From: Paraflavisolibacter caeni
GTDB lineage: Bacteria > Bacteroidota > Bacteroidia > Chitinophagales > Chitinophagaceae
Length of the DNA stretch: 64,000 nucleotides
Assembly (NCBI RefSeq): GCF_025628885.1
Contig: NZ_JAOTIF010000001.1
Span: 248,001-312,000 of the forward strand
Direction: 5' to 3'
In this document: piece after piece, positions 54,446 through 61,316 of the stretch
Numbering within the stretch: the stretch's first letter is position 1
How the letters are laid out: each line of letters starts with the position of its first letter
The notes under the pieces: model-generated
What the model was told of the DNA's origin: nothing
Database searches by the model: none
The model's input: only the letters and a program-made list of their open reading frames with translations
Position numbers and translations under genes: made by a program

Positions 54446-57100
54446 ATGAGACTAATCTTATTCCTGATTTTCAGTTTTTTTTCAATAGCCGTTTTTGCCC
54501 AGAGCAGCCGCATTGTGCAAACGTTAAACGCCGGATGGAAATTTCATAAAAGTAATGCAGCCGGATTGCAGGAAATGCTTCGTGAAAAAGAAGACTGGCA
54601 GCAGGTAAACCTCCCACATTGTTTTAATGCGGAAGATGGTGAGGATGAAAAGTATGGCTACTACCGGGGGAGCGCCTGGTACCTTAAAGAAATTTCGTTT
54701 GACTCTACTTACCTGAACCATCGAATATTCGTGTATTTTGAAGCAGCCAATCAGGTTTGTGAATTATTTGTAAACGGTATTGCAGCTGGAAAACATATAG
54801 GCGGATACGGTTCGTTCTGTTTTGAAATTACTTCGCTGATAAGATTAGGTGAAAAAAATGTATTAACCGTGCAGGTAGATAATAGGCATAATGAAGATAT
54901 TCCGCCTCTGGACGCCGATTTCTCTTTTATGGGAGGCATCTACCGGGATGTATACCTGATTACAACCAATACCGTTCATTTTGACTTGCTCAACAACGGC
55001 TCTAATGGTGTTTTCATCGAAACACCGATTGTGACAGAACAAGCAGCAACATGCCGGCTTCGTGCTACGATAAAAAACGATGGAACAACCAAACAAAAAA
55101 TATTCCTGCATACACGCATTACTAATGCTGGCGGCAAAATGGTGGCAACAAAATCAACTGCAGTTACAATTTTACCAGATCAATTATTTCAGGCTGAGCA
55201 AAACGGACTTTCGATTCCCACTCCCCATTTATGGAGCCCCGATTCGCCATATTTGTATACTGTTACCACAGAAATTACAGATTCGAATGGCCGTCTTATT
55301 GACCAGGTTTCCCATCCGCTTGGTTTACGCTGGTATACTTTTGATGCGGCCAAAGGATTTATCCTGAACGGAAAACCGTTGAAATTAATTGGAGTAAACC
55401 GCCATCAATTTTATACACACCAAGGCTTTGCTTTGAGCAACGAACAACATGTACATGATATTGAACTGTTGAAACAAATGGGCGGCAACTGTATTCGGAT
55501 TGCACATTACCAGCAGGATCCAGCAATACTGGAAGCATGCGACCGTTTGGGCATCATTGCAACAGAGGAAATTCCAATTGTCAATTACATTCATGAAAAT
55601 AGTAAAGATTTCCGCACTAACTGTTTGAACATGGCCGTAGAGTTGGTACGTCGGGACTACAATCATCCCAGCATATTTGTTTGGGCCTACATGAACGAAA
55701 TGCTGAACAACAACAAGCCGAAGAAGCCTGAAAACATGCGCCTATTAAACCGCCTGGCTGTTTCAATTGACAGTATTCTGCACGTAGAAGACAAAAACCG
55801 TTTTACTATGATTCCTAATGCCGAATGGTTCGAAGGTTATCGGGATGCAGGCCTGATTGATTTACCTCAAATCTGCGGATGGAATATTTATGAAGGCTGG
55901 TATGGTGAAAAGCTAAGTGACTTTGAACGATTCATGGATAACTTTCATAAACAATATCCAGACAAGCCGGTAATGATCACAGAATATGGCGCAGGTGCCG
56001 ACCCACGGGTACGCAGCTTCGCACCTGAGCGCTTCGACTTTTCGATGGAGTACCAGAATATCTACCACGAGCATTACCTTAAAGCCATCATGGAACGACC
56101 TTTTATTGCCGGGGCATTTGTATGGGCATTTGTCGACTTTTATGCAGAACCAAGGGTTGATGCCACGCCACATGTAAATAATAAAGGCCTGTTAACCTTA
56201 GACCGTAAGCTCAAAGACTGTTACTTCTTATACCAGGCTTATTTACAGAAAACCCCTTTGGTGTCCATTGCTTCCAAAGGCTGGGCTCAACGAGAAGGCT
56301 GTGCAGCTAGAACGGATGAAAATTTCTGTAAACAGCCAGTAACCATCTATTCGAATCAGCAGGAAATTGAGTTGTTTCTGCAAGGACAGTTATTGGAAAA
56401 AAAATCAGTTGTTGATCATAAAGCTGTTTTCGAAGTGCCATTTACTAATGGCAGCAATCTGCTTGAAGCGGTTTGCACAGCCGGTGGCAATGTGATAAAA
56501 GATGCAGCAACAATTCAATTCAGGCTTTGGGATTTTCCGTTGAGCAAACATCCAGAATCGTTTCCTGCTATCCATGTAAATGCCGGTTCGAATTATTCTT
56601 ATTATGATGAGAAGAATCAATGCACCTGGCTGGCTGACCAGGAATACAGTAAGGGAAGCTGGGGTTATACTTCCGGTAAAAGATACCGGGCAGGCAGTCG
56701 TCCGGCATCGCAGCGTGAAATTGGCTGTACGCAGGATGAGCCCCTATTTCAGACACAACAAACTGATCCCGGCTCATACCGTTTTGATGTGCCAGACGGT
56801 CAATACGAAGTGAGCCTTTACTTTGCAGAACTGTTATCGGAGGCTCAGATGCAGAAATCTCTATACAACCTGAGTGCCGATGCGACAGTTGGTAAAGCCG
56901 TGAAAAGAATTTTTAATGTGGATATCAATGGCTCTCGCTTTCTTCGACAATTAAATCTGAAAGAACAGTTTGGCGAAGCGGTGGCTGTACCATTTAAGTA
57001 CATCATTGATGTAAGAGACGGCAGAGGTATTGAAATTAAATTCAGCGCATTGGCCGGTGTGCCGGTGATCAATGCTTTATCGGTTGTAAGAATAAAATAG
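54446..57100 (+). CDS. glycoside hydrolase family 2 protein with C-terminal malectin-like domain
   Basis: An 884-residue secreted enzyme. A signal peptide (about 1-18, ending VFAQS) is followed by the GH2 sugar-binding domain (about 25-185: NAGWKFHKS, YYRGSAWY, VNGIAAGKHIGGYGSF), an Ig-like domain, and the TIM barrel (about 300-600). The general acid/base is Glu418 in WAYMNEML, and the nucleophile is Glu513 in ITEYGAG. The C-terminal part (about 725-884, VHVNAGSNYSYYDEKNQCTWLADQEY) resembles a malectin carbohydrate-binding domain. An NNKG motif in VNNKGLLTLDRK aligns with NxKG of beta-glucuronidases but also occurs in some beta-galactosidases. A glucuronidase would fit the nearby uronate genes, but the substrate is not proved. 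Confidence 0.88.
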   Translation: MRLILFLIFSFFSIAVFAQSSRIVQTLNAGWKFHKSNAAGLQEMLREKEDWQQVNLPHCFNAEDGEDEKYGYYRGSAWYLKEISFDSTYLNHRIFVYFEAANQVCELFVNGIAAGKHIGGYGSFCFEITSLIRLGEKNVLTVQVDNRHNEDIPPLDADFSFMGGIYRDVYLITTNTVHFDLLNNGSNGVFIETPIVTEQAATCRLRATIKNDGTTKQKIFLHTRITNAGGKMVATKSTAVTILPDQLFQAEQNGLSIPTPHLWSPDSPYLYTVTTEITDSNGRLIDQVSHPLGLRWYTFDAAKGFILNGKPLKLIGVNRHQFYTHQGFALSNEQHVHDIELLKQMGGNCIRIAHYQQDPAILEACDRLGIIATEEIPIVNYIHENSKDFRTNCLNMAVELVRRDYNHPSIFVWAYMNEMLNNNKPKKPENMRLLNRLAVSIDSILHVEDKNRFTMIPNAEWFEGYRDAGLIDLPQICGWNIYEGWYGEKLSDFERFMDNFHKQYPDKPVMITEYGAGADPRVRSFAPERFDFSMEYQNIYHEHYLKAIMERPFIAGAFVWAFVDFYAEPRVDATPHVNNKGLLTLDRKLKDCYFLYQAYLQKTPLVSIASKGWAQREGCAARTDENFCKQPVTIYSNQQEIELFLQGQLLEKKSVVDHKAVFEVPFTNGSNLLEAVCTAGGNVIKDAATIQFRLWDFPLSKHPESFPAIHVNAGSNYSYYDEKNQCTWLADQEYSKGSWGYTSGKRYRAGSRPASQREIGCTQDEPLFQTQQTDPGSYRFDVPDGQYEVSLYFAELLSEAQMQKSLYNLSADATVGKAVKRIFNVDINGSRFLRQLNLKEQFGEAVAVPFKYIIDVRDGRGIEIKFSALAGVPVINALSVVRIK

Positions 57101-57217: not shown

Positions 57218-59983
57218 CTAATTCGGTATCAAACTCACCGGCAGCACCACCTCCCAAACATTTCTGTTCCCATTAACCGCAAACTGCTGATCAAGCAAGT
57301 AGCTATACCTGACACCAATCGTCACCGGCAGTTGGTTCCAAACCTTGGCGTCAAAAAACAGTTCTGCTCCTGTGCTTTGCATATAGGCGCTCTGTTTATT
57401 ATCCCTTGAATACACTTCGCTGAAATCATAGAAGGCATTTCCCCGAATACGCTGGAAATAAATAAGCCCGCCAAAACCCCAGTCAGGATAAGCAATAGGG
57501 AAGTGGTAATTTGCCGAGGCTCTATACATCTTGGCGGAATCTAAACCAAAGTCATTATACCCTCTCGAATAGGGGAACATGTCGGAGAAAAAAACACCCT
57601 TTTCATTTCTTTGTTGAAGGTTGCCTGAAAGTACAATACTGTGATTACCAAAAGAGGGCAGGTATACTTGTCCATTAACATTAACCTGGTAGCCATTATA
57701 GTCTAACTGTTGTCTGTGTGCAGCGGATAGGCTATATCCAAGCTTCGGATAGATATGCTGCCGTGTCTTGGGTAGTTGCTGCGTAAAGCTAATATAGTTA
57801 TGTATATAAGGCTGGGTCCCGTCAGCAAGTTCTATACCCTTGGTTTTCGATTCCAGTTGCCTCCATACAAAATTGCTTCCAATACCAAAATACTTGTATG
57901 TTCTGCCTTTTGAAAAATTTAATGGAATAAAATATCCTGCCCTTGCTTCAAATTGATCAATAAGTATGAGCCTGCGATTGGCATAAACATGACGGTCATA
58001 TGTATATTCCGCACCTGTCGTGATCTGCGGGAACCATCCTCCATAAATTGCATTGACACCTACTCCATGCGATTCTTCATTTTGATTGTAACGGTAAAAT
58101 AGCTCGCTGGACAAAGTGTTCAGGATATTATTACTGAAAATACTGAACGTAAATTCTGGGTCTTCATAATAGGGACGCCAACTGTGAATATTCAACAATC
58201 GCGTAGACTTTGCATAACGGGCTACAGGGAAATCACGTGTAGGTGTAGCCAAGACATTACTCGATACTGTGGCAACATCATACGAAGTTACCGGCCTTCT
58301 TAATGTGGCAGGTGTCACTTCGGTCCATGGCAAGGTTTTCATGGATGCCGTTTGTAACCTCAATCCTTTTGCTGTAAAACTGGCCCAGGCAAGACTATCT
58401 GCAGAGGCGCCAACATAATAATGGCCCGTCTGTCCGGAAGTCAGTTGGTAAAACTTTCCATCTCTCAACGCATACAGGTCATCGTTGCCCGAAGCTGAGG
58501 ATGTAAAATAAATGGTTTCCCCTTGGACAAACGGGTGTCCCAAAGTATTATAGCCCGCTTCCAGTAATGTTTCACTATTCCCATTCACCAGGTTCCTCTT
58601 GTGCAAACTCATAGAGCCATCCGGAGCACGTTCTATAAAGATGATGTTTTCATCATCTAAAAAGCGGGGATGTAAAAAATAAGTGCCTTTGGGTGCTGGC
58701 ACCTTTTTATGTACTTGGCCTGTCACCGCATCTAAAAGCTGTAACTCGGTTTGCGTAGAGTCATTCACAGAAATAGTCACGATGTTTTTGCCCGAAGGTG
58801 AAATGTCCGGTGTGTAATATTTCCCCTTGCTGGTCAGTCTACGCTCTCTCTTGGATTGAATGTCAAGTAAAACAATATCACTGTAATCAATCAGTTCCCA
58901 TCGGGCATCAGTGGCAAAAGCTGTGTAGGCGATTACTCCATTGCGGTAGGAGAACCAGTCTTCTGTTGAAATGGACCGTAGTTTTATTTTATGTTCTTCA
59001 CCCTGGGTACGCACATAGAAAGCTGGTAATGACCGGTAGCTTTCTTTCAGGTAAATGATGGAATCTGGAGATATGAATTGAGGGAAATAATAATTGGTAA
59101 CGGTTTTATCCTTGGGAGTGGTGTAGCCTTTGTCCGGTTGTAAGGTTTGCTGGCTGTGTTGCAGTGCATCCTTGATAAAGCTTCGGTACGATACACCGGC
59201 ATGTTTTTGAATAGCCTGCCGGAAGGGGTAAGCTAATCCTTTAAAAGAAGCCGCATCATTGATCACCTTACCCCAGAAGTCACTGCCGTATTTTTCATAG
59301 CCATAATTCACGGCCATATAGCCAAAGTTGTAATGGTTGGGTACATAATCTTTTAAAGATCCATTCAGCATCTTCATCAACCTGTATTGCTTGCCTTCCA
59401 GGAATACGCTGTTGTAGCCGCTCAAAAAATAGGGGAGTCGCCCTCTGCCCTGTGGCGTGTTAGCTGTTTCCGTATGGACGGCATCGCCTTCAAAGAACCA
59501 GTTCGGGATAGTTATGCCATTGGCTATTGCCTGTCCTTCTTCTCCAAAGATCAGGCGGAAAGCCTTAGCCAGTCCTTTGTTCATGTTGTTGTATTGCTGT
59601 ACGTGGCGGTATTCGTGCACTGCCAGGTGCTCGTGCCAGGGAAGGTTGCCCATTTCTACTGTATTGGACGAAGGCACCAGGTAAAATTCACTTCGGTAAG
59701 GTCCCAATCCCACATAGCCGTTGGCCAGCGTGGTATTGCTGTGTAATATGATGTTGATCTTTCTCAGGCGGTCACCCAAGGGGTTGGGTTGCTGGGCTGC
59801 CAGTTGATGAATGATGGCAGCGATGCTTTGAGCCTGCGCTTTTGCCTGGGGCTGAAAAATGATTCTTGCAGTATCTGTTGAGATCTGTTTCCATTTTACT
59901 GAGGGTGGAAAAGCGCCAAACTGCTGAGCCTGTAAACTGATATATGAAAGAAGGATGAGTGCCAGTACCTGAATTCGAATCAT
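57218..59983 (-). CDS. secreted peptidase/beta-propeller/beta-barrel protein
   Basis: A 921-residue protein with a signal peptide (residues 1-20, ending LQAQQ). The first domain (about 25-270) has a gluzincin-type motif, HEYRH at residues 123-127, and a third ligand Glu in WFFEGDAVHTE near residue 165, as in peptidase MA-type domains. TolB-like propeller repeats follow (about 300-580, for example KYYTPDISPSGKNIVTISVND, HPRFLDDENIIFIERAPDGSMSL). The C-terminal third (about 610-921) is rich in beta strands with YDRHVYANRRLILIDQF-type pairs, a likely outer-membrane barrel. The whole looks like a surface protein with peptidase activity. Substrate unknown. Confidence 0.78.
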   Translation of the reverse strand: MIRIQVLALILLSYISLQAQQFGAFPPSVKWKQISTDTARIIFQPQAKAQAQSIAAIIHQLAAQQPNPLGDRLRKINIILHSNTTLANGYVGLGPYRSEFYLVPSSNTVEMGNLPWHEHLAVHEYRHVQQYNNMNKGLAKAFRLIFGEEGQAIANGITIPNWFFEGDAVHTETANTPQGRGRLPYFLSGYNSVFLEGKQYRLMKMLNGSLKDYVPNHYNFGYMAVNYGYEKYGSDFWGKVINDAASFKGLAYPFRQAIQKHAGVSYRSFIKDALQHSQQTLQPDKGYTTPKDKTVTNYYFPQFISPDSIIYLKESYRSLPAFYVRTQGEEHKIKLRSISTEDWFSYRNGVIAYTAFATDARWELIDYSDIVLLDIQSKRERRLTSKGKYYTPDISPSGKNIVTISVNDSTQTELQLLDAVTGQVHKKVPAPKGTYFLHPRFLDDENIIFIERAPDGSMSLHKRNLVNGNSETLLEAGYNTLGHPFVQGETIYFTSSASGNDDLYALRDGKFYQLTSGQTGHYYVGASADSLAWASFTAKGLRLQTASMKTLPWTEVTPATLRRPVTSYDVATVSSNVLATPTRDFPVARYAKSTRLLNIHSWRPYYEDPEFTFSIFSNNILNTLSSELFYRYNQNEESHGVGVNAIYGGWFPQITTGAEYTYDRHVYANRRLILIDQFEARAGYFIPLNFSKGRTYKYFGIGSNFVWRQLESKTKGIELADGTQPYIHNYISFTQQLPKTRQHIYPKLGYSLSAAHRQQLDYNGYQVNVNGQVYLPSFGNHSIVLSGNLQQRNEKGVFFSDMFPYSRGYNDFGLDSAKMYRASANYHFPIAYPDWGFGGLIYFQRIRGNAFYDFSEVYSRDNKQSAYMQSTGAELFFDAKVWNQLPVTIGVRYSYLLDQQFAVNGNRNVWEVVLPVSLIPN

Positions 59984-60119: not shown

Positions 60120-61316
60120 ATGTTTTTGATGGCCCTGGCCATAGCGCCAAGTTTAGCAGTATGCTTATTCATTTTCTATAAGGACGTTTACGACCAGGAG
60201 CCGACAAAATATCTGCTGATGAGCTTTTTTTATGGCATGCTGACCATTGTTCCGGCTGGTATTCTGGAAACTTCTCTTTTTAACGACCCCGACGATACAG
60301 TTTTTTCTGTTTTTTTAACCTCTTATTTATTGATAGCAGCAGTGGAGGAAGGTTTTAAATTCATAGTACTCCGCTTCTACTGTTATAGACGGCCCACCTT
60401 TGATGAGCCGCTCGACGGCATTGTGTACAGCGTTATGGTAAGCATGGGCTTTGCTACATTAGAAAATGTGGGCTATGTATGGCTGCATGGCTTTCCCGTG
60501 GCATTCGTACGTATGTTTACCTCCGTGCCTGCCCATGCCACTTTCGGCGTTATTATGGGTTATTACCTCGGGAAATCAAAGTTCGACTGGCCCAACAGGA
60601 AAAAACTGCTTTGGTATAGTTTCCTGGGGGCTACCCTCATGCATGGTACCTACGATTTGTTCCTGCTCCTGGGTGAAAATAATTGGGTGAAGCAATATGT
60701 CTCAGAGTTGCTGCTGTTTGGTGGGGCGCTCGGCTCACTCTTTATCTCCGTTACCCTCAGCCGTAAATTATTGCACCAACATCATATAACTTCGCTCCGG
60801 TTATTTACACAATCTCCCGTGCTTACATTCAGGAATGCATCTATAAGTGATATCAATCTCATCAGGACCTTATCCATGCAGGTTTGGCCTCAAACTTATT
60901 CGACCATACTTACCCAGCCCCAGATCATGTACATGCTTGAGATCATGTACAGCCCGGCAGCAATACGCAGGCAAATGGATGAGCAACACCAGTTTATTAT
61001 AGTATATAATGCAGGTGTGCCGGTAGGTTTTGCCTCCTATAGCGAGACCGAGCCTTCCATTTTTAGGCTGCACAAACTGTATGTGCTTCCTGTTCACCAG
61101 GGGAGGGGCACAGGCAAATCTATCATTAGCCAGATCATCAATGAGGTCACCACCAAGGGTGCCCAGATCCTGCAGTTAAACGTGAATCGCCTGAATAAAG
61201 CAAAGACCTTCTACGAAAAAATGGGCTTTGAAGCAATTCGTTCTGAAGATATTGACATCGGTAATGGTTTCTTCATGAACGATTACGTTATGGAGAAAAG
61301 GCTTCAATCCATTTGA
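60120..61316 (+). CDS. PrsW-type intramembrane protease fused to a GNAT domain
   Basis: A 398-residue protein. The N-terminal membrane part (about 1-215) carries the PrsW signature: EEGFK at residues 76-80, FATLENVGY (about 111-119), PAHATFGVIMGYY (H139) and LMHGTYDLFLL (H175). PrsW proteins are glutamic-type intramembrane proteases that cleave anti-sigma factors. From about residue 235 a GNAT acetyltransferase domain follows, with LYVLPVHQGRGTGKSI (acetyl-CoA loop QGRGTG at 327-332) and LNVNRLNKAKTFYEKMGFEAI. The two are in one uninterrupted frame, with no hint of frameshift at the junction (about 220-235). The fusion is unusual; the function of the GNAT part is unknown. Confidence 0.88.
   Translation: MFLMALAIAPSLAVCLFIFYKDVYDQEPTKYLLMSFFYGMLTIVPAGILETSLFNDPDDTVFSVFLTSYLLIAAVEEGFKFIVLRFYCYRRPTFDEPLDGIVYSVMVSMGFATLENVGYVWLHGFPVAFVRMFTSVPAHATFGVIMGYYLGKSKFDWPNRKKLLWYSFLGATLMHGTYDLFLLLGENNWVKQYVSELLLFGGALGSLFISVTLSRKLLHQHHITSLRLFTQSPVLTFRNASISDINLIRTLSMQVWPQTYSTILTQPQIMYMLEIMYSPAAIRRQMDEQHQFIIVYNAGVPVGFASYSETEPSIFRLHKLYVLPVHQGRGTGKSIISQIINEVTTKGAQILQLNVNRLNKAKTFYEKMGFEAIRSEDIDIGNGFFMNDYVMEKRLQSI

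What the first reader, a model, noticed from the sequence alone, without database searches (positions are those of the whole stretch)
60120..61316. PrsW-type intramembrane protease fused to a GNAT acetyltransferase domain
The N-terminal membrane part has the PrsW motifs (E76/E77, FATLENVGY, H139, H175), and the same uninterrupted frame continues into a complete-looking GNAT domain with a QGRGTG acetyl-CoA loop. A fusion of a site-1-type membrane protease with an acyltransferase would link membrane proteolysis to acetylation, a pairing I do not know as a described system. The domains are seen in the sequence; the functional link is inference.
Basis: partly seen in the sequence, partly recalled or inferred. 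Interest (0 to 1): 0.75.

Follow-up and report, generated by a model that had tools for sequence, protein, structure and literature searches.

The report
Membrane protease fused to acetyltransferase
In one branch of soil and water bacteria, two neighbouring genes, a membrane-embedded protease and an acetyl-transferring enzyme, have merged into one protein whose conserved active sites both look intact; it probably holds the second enzyme at the inner face of the membrane, and what either part acts on is unknown.

Summary
Observation confirmed. ORF 60120-61316 (+) is one 398-codon frame: a seven-helix PrsW protease domain (PF13367, E 2e-36), then a complete GNAT domain (PF13673, E 1e-16). The fusion recurs: 12 of 52 PrsW-bearing Chitinophagaceae genomes (8 genera; 191 searched), and 18 of 80 named loci. 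PrsW motifs, GNAT loop glycines and Tyr365 are invariant in 20 distinct fusions. Of the 52, 41 carry the GNAT directly downstream, 12 of them fused; unfused pairs often overlap (29 of 47). Outside the family, 0 of 22 listed genomes with both matches have them adjacent. Loop charges place the GNAT in the cytoplasm.

Against a tight link: the GNAT lacks PrsW in 102 of 147 genomes, each gene is lost without the other, and one Paracnuella fusion has a degenerate GNAT. The GNAT is PaiA-like in fold, but PaiA's catalytic Glu is Lys/Arg in 105 of 106 homologues, so polyamine acetylation is not supported.

PrsW with a cytoplasmic C-terminal domain (PilZ, FHA, cNMP-binding, Zn-ribbon) is a published kind; my paper searches showed no acetyltransferase partner. 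Verdict: a real new variant of a known kind; the protease-acetylation link is unproved.

The parts
60120..61316 (+). Fused PrsW-GNAT gene, 398 aa plus stop
   Evidence: single frame; Pfam PF13367 and PF13673
60120..60785 (+). PrsW protease part, residues 1-222; EExxK 76-80, F111xxxE115, H139, H175xxxD179
   Evidence: motifs E76, E77, K80, E115, H139, H175, D179 invariant in 113 PrsW sequences
60786..60809 (+). Linker, residues 223-230; end of the last helix (196-229) leading to the GNAT part
   Evidence: AlphaFold2 model; basic tail
60810..61313 (+). GNAT acetyltransferase part, residues 231-398; loop Q327-G328-R-G330-T-G332, Tyr321, Tyr365

Best explanation
It is a bifunctional inner-membrane protein. 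The N-terminal seven-helix part is a PrsW-type glutamate/histidine intramembrane protease; the C-terminal part is a working acetyl-CoA-dependent acetyltransferase on the cytoplasmic face. It arose when an existing Chitinophagaceae gene pair, PrsW followed directly by GNAT and usually with overlapping stop and start, was joined in frame, most simply once. The immediate effect is fixed 1:1 dosage and tethering to the membrane of an acetyltransferase that looks soluble in most relatives. The most likely role is that both enzymes serve one envelope pathway: PrsW cuts a membrane protein and the GNAT modifies an amine on the cytoplasmic side of the same substrate or pathway. Shown: domains, active-site conservation, adjacency, fusion, purifying selection. 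Predicted: seven helices, C-terminus inside. Inferred: that both parts are active, the shared pathway, and all substrates.
For: One frame with both domains; 20 distinct fusions; PrsW motifs invariant in 113 sequences; Tyr365, Tyr321 and loop glycines invariant in 20 fusions; dN/dS 0.026-0.093 in both domains for 6 of 8 pairs. GNAT directly downstream on the same strand in 41 of 52 PrsW-bearing family genomes, 12 fused. 29 of 47 unfused pairs overlap, 22 by exactly 8 nt, largest gap 23 nt. Basic residues alternate through the loops and mark the tail as cytoplasmic. Confident model with one long helix from the membrane into the GNAT.
Against: GNAT without PrsW in 102 of 147 family genomes; PrsW without close GNAT in 7 of 52. 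Co-occurrence is weak (45 of 52 against 102 of 139, Fisher p 0.057, not corrected for kinship). Adjacency is not seen outside the family (0 of 22). In the window's genus the parts are lost separately. The Paracnuella fusion keeps PrsW but has a degenerate GNAT, Tyr365 to Phe. No substrate or activity is known for either part.
Confidence: 0.5

Rival explanations
1. Passenger fusion: two independent enzymes were joined by read-through of an overlapping gene pair. The fusion is tolerated and has no joint function beyond co-expression.
For: Each gene occurs and is lost without the other; the surrounding genes are housekeeping-like and the same synteny is found around copies with and without PrsW; overlapping pairs are one frameshift away from fusion; a degenerate GNAT is tolerated in Paracnuella.
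Against: The pair stays adjacent and in one order across the family, and the fusion persists through large divergence (47-53% identity) with both active sites kept.
Confidence: 0.33
2. The GNAT part is a sensor: binding of acetyl-CoA (or CoA) gates the protease, as proposed for PilZ, FHA or cyclic-nucleotide domains fused to PrsW.
For: PrsW fused to intracellular signalling domains is described and read as signalling peptidases (PMC3482391 section 9). Paracnuella keeps two of three loop glycines while losing Tyr365 and other residues.
Against: In the 20 other fusions Tyr365 and the acceptor-side residues are as conserved as in 39 GNAT copies that are not next to PrsW, which points to kept catalysis. 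The sensor reading rests on one degenerate sequence.
Confidence: 0.12
3. Polyamine acetyltransferase of the PaiA kind tethered to the membrane.
For: Closest solved structures are PaiA-like; all 33 GNAT members tested match the NCBIfam PaiA model.
Against: The window scores 25.6-29.2 bits against a cut-off of 250; the base Glu of these enzymes is Lys/Arg in 105 of 106 homologues (role of Glu92 from passages of PMC10416765).
Confidence: 0.04
4. Sequencing or assembly artefact joining two genes.
For: None found.
Against: 20 distinct fused sequences from different genomes; the window's frame is uninterrupted.
Confidence: 0.01

Closest known systems
PrsW of Bacillus subtilis (PF13367; MEROPS M82; called YpdC in PMC12943098)
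   Same: Motifs EExxK, FxxxE, His and HxxxD/N at nearly the same residue numbers, seven helices in the core, N-terminus outside (PMC4602095 and PMC12943098, passages)
   Different: Has no GNAT part; scores here are below the NCBIfam equivalog cut-off; the substrate RsiW is not known here
PrsW fused to intracellular signalling domains (PilZ, cNMP-binding, FHA, Zn-ribbon), e.g. Leptospira LIC_20173 PrsW-PilZ
   Same: PrsW core followed by a C-terminal domain placed in the cytoplasm (PMC3482391 section 9; PMC12943098, passages)
   Different: The partner here is an enzyme of the GNAT family with conserved catalytic-type residues; LIC_20173 has two further helices before its PilZ domain
PaiA-type GNATs (B. 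subtilis PaiA 1tiq, L. curiae GNAT 8osp, S. mutans 4e2a, Ta0374 3k9u)
   Same: Fold (TM by target length 0.86 for 8osp, 0.84 for 1tiq, 0.77 for 4e2a), Tyr of the FYEK motif, Tyr97 equivalent (Tyr321)
   Different: Base Glu92 replaced by Arg316 here and Lys/Arg in 105 of 106 homologues; those are separate soluble proteins
PrsW polymorphic toxins
   Same: N-terminal PrsW, short linker, C-terminal domain (PMC3482391 section 9)
   Different: The C-terminal domain here is a conserved GNAT that also occurs alone, not a variable toxin cassette

Membership tests
PrsW intramembrane proteases (PF13367) | Profile match over the family cut-off | tested here: met
   125.7 bits against 23.5
PrsW intramembrane proteases (PF13367) | Motifs EExxK, FxxxE, conserved His, HxxxD/N | tested here: met
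   E76 E77 K80, F111 E115, H139, H175 D179; motif definitions from passages
PrsW intramembrane proteases (PF13367) | Seven-helix membrane core, N-terminus outside | tested here: met
   by prediction only: helices in the model and loop charges
PrsW intramembrane proteases (PF13367) | Proteolytic activity | not testable with these tools
   needs a bench assay
PrsW proper, the RsiW site-1 protease (NCBIfam NF033739 equivalog) | Score over the curated cut-off | tested here: not met
   174 bits against 225
PrsW with a cytoplasmic C-terminal domain | PrsW core followed by an intracellular domain in one chain | tested here: met
   cytoplasmic side by loop charges
PrsW with a cytoplasmic C-terminal domain | C-terminal domain controls the protease | not testable with these tools
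   proposed, not shown, in PMC3482391 section 9
GNAT superfamily | GNAT fold, acetyl-CoA loop, catalytic-type Tyr | tested here: met
PaiA-type polyamine acetyltransferase | Base Glu (Glu92 of the L. curiae enzyme) | tested here: not met
   Arg316 here; Lys/Arg in 105 of 106, Gln in 1 (alignment)
PaiA-type polyamine acetyltransferase | NCBIfam NF053587 cut-off | tested here: not met
   25.6 bits (whole protein) and 29.2 bits (GNAT part) against 250
PaiA-type polyamine acetyltransferase | Acts on polyamines | not testable with these tools
   needs a bench assay
PrsW-type polymorphic toxin | Variable C-terminal toxin domain | tested here: not met
   the C-terminal domain is one conserved GNAT orthologue, found without PrsW in 102 family genomes

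The most novel reading that the evidence does not exclude
Membrane proteolysis is coupled to acetyl-CoA: the cytoplasmic GNAT either acetylates the protein that PrsW cuts, marking it for its fate, or gates the protease by the acetyl-CoA level. This would be a metabolite- or acetylation-controlled form of regulated intramembrane proteolysis, with chemistry that differs from PaiA because the base Glu is replaced by Lys/Arg.
Probability: 0.2. Interest if true: 0.78.

Novelty: new variant of a known kind. Interest (0 to 1): 0.45.

Why it matters
To my knowledge (recalled, not searched exhaustively) PrsW substrates outside Firmicutes are largely unknown. A conserved pairing with an acetyltransferase gives a concrete handle: the acceptor of the GNAT may point to the pathway that PrsW serves in Bacteroidota. 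If the two activities depend on each other, it would be the first acetyl-CoA-linked PrsW in the papers I could search. The Lys/Arg-for-Glu change also marks a GNAT subfamily, common in the family, whose acceptor is not known.

Tried and rejected
Polyamine acetylation as the function: suggested by PaiA similarity, lowered because the base Glu is Lys/Arg.

Direct acetylation of the new N-terminus made by PrsW: from the helix ends the protease residues seem to lie mid-membrane or towards the outer side, while the GNAT is inside. This is a reading of residue numbers; distances were not measured because no coordinates were available in the box.

Functional hint from neighbours: families that recur near the locus are SAHH, a TolB-like protein, isocitrate dehydrogenase, an Lrp-type regulator, a transglycosylase/transpeptidase, ValS-type tRNA synthetase, YfhO, PAP2 and others; two of ten submitted had no Pfam match. 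They also surround GNAT-only and PrsW-only loci. In 19 regions outside the family no neighbour was shared by more than 3 loci. Dead end.

TM anchor of the GNAT-only copy in G574 as a relic of the last PrsW helix: not supported by the profile test (score -0.7; 305 of 500 shuffles as good), and tblastn found no PrsW remnant (best E 1.0). One search listed ORFs beside the TolB-like gene in 10 same-genus loci and gave nothing more.

Defence system: no PADLOC match. Polymorphic toxin: see membership test.

Several independent fusions: the PrsW-only tree (quick search) asks for 4 changes, 2 of them forced by well-supported branches; the concatenated tree asks for 1. Single origin preferred, weakly.

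Full report
1. Observation. ORF 60120-61316 on the + strand is one open frame of 398 codons. Pfam finds PrsW-protease (2.2e-36, residues 27-187) and GNAT families (best PF13673, 1.3e-16, residues 277-377) in it. It is the only PF13367 match in its 7.0-Mb genome; the other matches to the protein there are GNAT-type and only 25-34% identical. The AlphaFold2 model, made from an alignment of 98 window and locus proteins (20 fused, the rest single PrsW or GNAT proteins), has mean pLDDT 95.7 and pTM 0.83. It shows the membrane helices, a last long helix 196-229, and a GNAT-type fold.

2. The fusion recurs. In 195 family genomes the full-length query gave a match in 181, many of them to the GNAT part only or weak. 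With the PrsW part alone, 52 of 191 genomes match at E<=1e-8. Of these 52, 12 have open frames of 398-459 aa and the other 40 at most 289 aa. All 12 were read and hold both domains in one frame; they come from 8 genera. In the named genome collection 251 stretches encode a relative and the best 80 were kept. Of these 80, 18 are one-frame fusions, among them Terrimonas ferruginea, Terrimonas ginsenosidimutans and Flavisolibacter nicotianae; a nineteenth, Paracnuella aquatica (L054), is a fusion whose GNAT is degenerate and fell below the cut of that script. After removal of duplicate PrsW sequences, 113 rows remain: 20 fused, 47 adjacent pairs, 2 convergent, 44 without a GNAT match. The 44 include L054, loci from outside the family, and loci cut short or masked such as L092, so they are not a count of true absences.

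3. The pair came first. Of the 52 family genomes with PrsW, 45 have a close GNAT (E<=1e-22): 41 directly downstream on the same strand (12 fused, 29 separate), 2 downstream on the opposite strand, 1 far away, 1 on another contig; 7 have none at that threshold. In 47 distinct unfused pairs, 29 overlap, 22 of them by exactly 8 nt, and the largest gap is 23 nt; the start codons are my assignment by position. Outside the family, in a sample of 149 genomes of the order that also holds some family members, I picked by eye 22 listed genomes with both kinds of match; 2 have them on one contig, 78 kb and 386 kb apart, none adjacent. The match list was cut, and 6 of the 22 rest on GNAT matches weaker than 1e-25. 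In 247 genomes of the phylum only the window genome gave a full-length match at E<=1e-25; in G422 the two lie about 9.3 kb apart on opposite strands. So adjacency is a Chitinophagaceae trait in these samples.

4. One fusion event? A concatenated tree of 66 rows (20 fused, 46 pairs) needs a single change, support 64/72, seen in 63% of 200 bootstrap trees. The PrsW-only tree of 113 rows, a quick search, needs 4, of which well-supported branches force 2. Single origin is preferred but not shown.

5. Both active sites are kept. E76, E77, K80, E115, H139, H175 and D179 are invariant in 113 PrsW sequences, fused or not; F111 is invariant in 12 fusions. These are the published PrsW motifs (PMC4602095, passages; PMC12943098, passages). 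In the GNAT part, Tyr365, Tyr321 and the three loop glycines are invariant in 20 fusions. Among 106 sequences (20 fused, 47 paired, 39 copies not next to PrsW) Tyr321 is in all and Tyr365 in 105, the other row having a gap; the degenerate Paracnuella copy, counted apart, has Phe. Two of the 39 copies come from genomes (G126, G034) that have PrsW elsewhere. For 6 of 8 pairs of related fusions dN/dS is 0.026-0.093 in both domains; several of these have dS above 1, so the ratio is rough, and for 2 pairs dS was saturated.

6. Orientation. Mean Lys+Arg per loop in fusions is 3.2, 0.35, 2.95, 0.55, 3.55, 0.65, and 3.1 in the tail; paired and other PrsW show the same alternation (a version on 12 fusions). 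With seven helices this predicts N-terminus out and C-terminus in, so the GNAT faces the cytoplasm, where acetyl-CoA is. PMC12943098 likewise gives seven helices in the PrsW core and an N-terminus in the periplasm (passages).

7. What the GNAT is. The closest solved structures by sequence profile are PaiA 1tiq (7.6e-20), 3fnc (1.8e-18) and 8osp (1.4e-16); by fold 8osp, 4e2a and 1tiq (TM by target length 0.86, 0.77, 0.84, GNAT part only). In the L. curiae enzyme (8osp) Glu92 and Tyr142 matter for catalysis and Tyr97 is semi-conserved (PMC10416765, passages). By the alignments, Tyr142 corresponds to Tyr365, Tyr97 to Tyr321 and Glu92 to Arg316; 1tiq, 3fnc, 8osp, 3k9u and 4e2a have Glu there. In this family the position is Lys or Arg in 105 of 106 sequences and Gln in one. 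His318, two residues on, is in 19 of 20 fusions but varies elsewhere. So it is PaiA-like in fold and probably not a polyamine acetyltransferase. The acceptor is unknown.

8. Results against a tight link. GNAT without PrsW: 102 of 147 GNAT-bearing genomes. Co-occurrence is weak: 45 of 52 against 102 of 139, Fisher p 0.057, not corrected for kinship. In the window's genus (18 genomes, E<=1e-15) two are fused (G000, G562), two keep PrsW without the GNAT (G560, G564), one keeps a GNAT with a single N-terminal membrane helix (G574), and 13 have neither. The TolB-like neighbour was found in 10 of 12 same-genus genomes searched, namely 9 of 11 with neither gene, and G574; two of the 13 were not searched. 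Of 39 distinct GNAT copies not next to PrsW, only the G574 copy has a clear N-terminal membrane helix (mean hydropathy 2.64; next 1.72, which scored G574 twice). The surroundings are similar with or without PrsW, so they explain nothing about function.

9. Literature. Searches 'PrsW GNAT' (5 papers), 'PrsW acetyltransferase fusion' (4), 'PrsW Bacteroidetes' (6), 'PrsW intramembrane protease' (16 held, 15 listed), 'intramembrane protease' with 'acetyltransferase domain' (0), and two or more of 'PrsW, cytoplasmic domain, FHA, PilZ' (297 held, 10 listed) showed no PrsW-acetyltransferase fusion in the titles and abstract openings listed. The library is open-licence PMC only, so this is not proof of absence. 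PMC3482391 section 9 (that section read in full; other passages) describes PrsW fused to PilZ, cNMP-binding, FHA and Zn-ribbon domains and proposes signalling peptidases; it also describes PrsW-toxin fusions. PMC12943098 (passages) describes a Leptospira PrsW-PilZ protein. Passages on PrsW in PMC9263693 were also seen. The PaiA search (13 held, 8 listed) and a membrane-anchored GNAT search (11 held, 10 listed) were read as listings only, apart from PMC10416765.

10. Verdict. The fusion is real, conserved, and apparently intact in both parts. It is a new variant of a known kind, PrsW with a C-terminal cytoplasmic domain. Joint function is plausible but unproved; passenger fusion is the main rival.

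Noticed in passing
L168:1378-2040 counted on the reverse strand (same-genus genome G574): A GNAT-only copy in the same synteny carries one clear N-terminal membrane helix, the only one among 39 distinct copies not next to PrsW. A membrane-anchored acetyltransferase without the protease; origin of the helix not shown.
   Followed up: partly
L054:4001-5209 (Paracnuella aquatica): A fusion whose PrsW motifs are intact but whose GNAT is degenerate: Tyr365 equivalent is Phe, residue 316 equivalent is His, the LNVNR motif is changed, two of three loop glycines kept.
   Followed up: partly
GNAT family in 106 sequences; window residue 316: The position of the base Glu of PaiA-like enzymes is Lys/Arg in 105 of 106 homologues, marking a GNAT subfamily with unknown acceptor.
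   Followed up: partly
G338:C46:134956-135537: A PrsW match in another family of the phylum lies in an open frame of 492 aa, so it may be fused to a different domain.
   Followed up: no
57218-59983, minus strand: TolB-like propeller protein of 921 aa: no Pfam match at 0.001, only a weak NCBIfam TolB match. It is the divergent neighbour of the locus in many relatives.
   Followed up: partly
54446-57100, plus strand: Glycoside hydrolase family 2 protein with a malectin domain towards the C-terminus.
   Followed up: no
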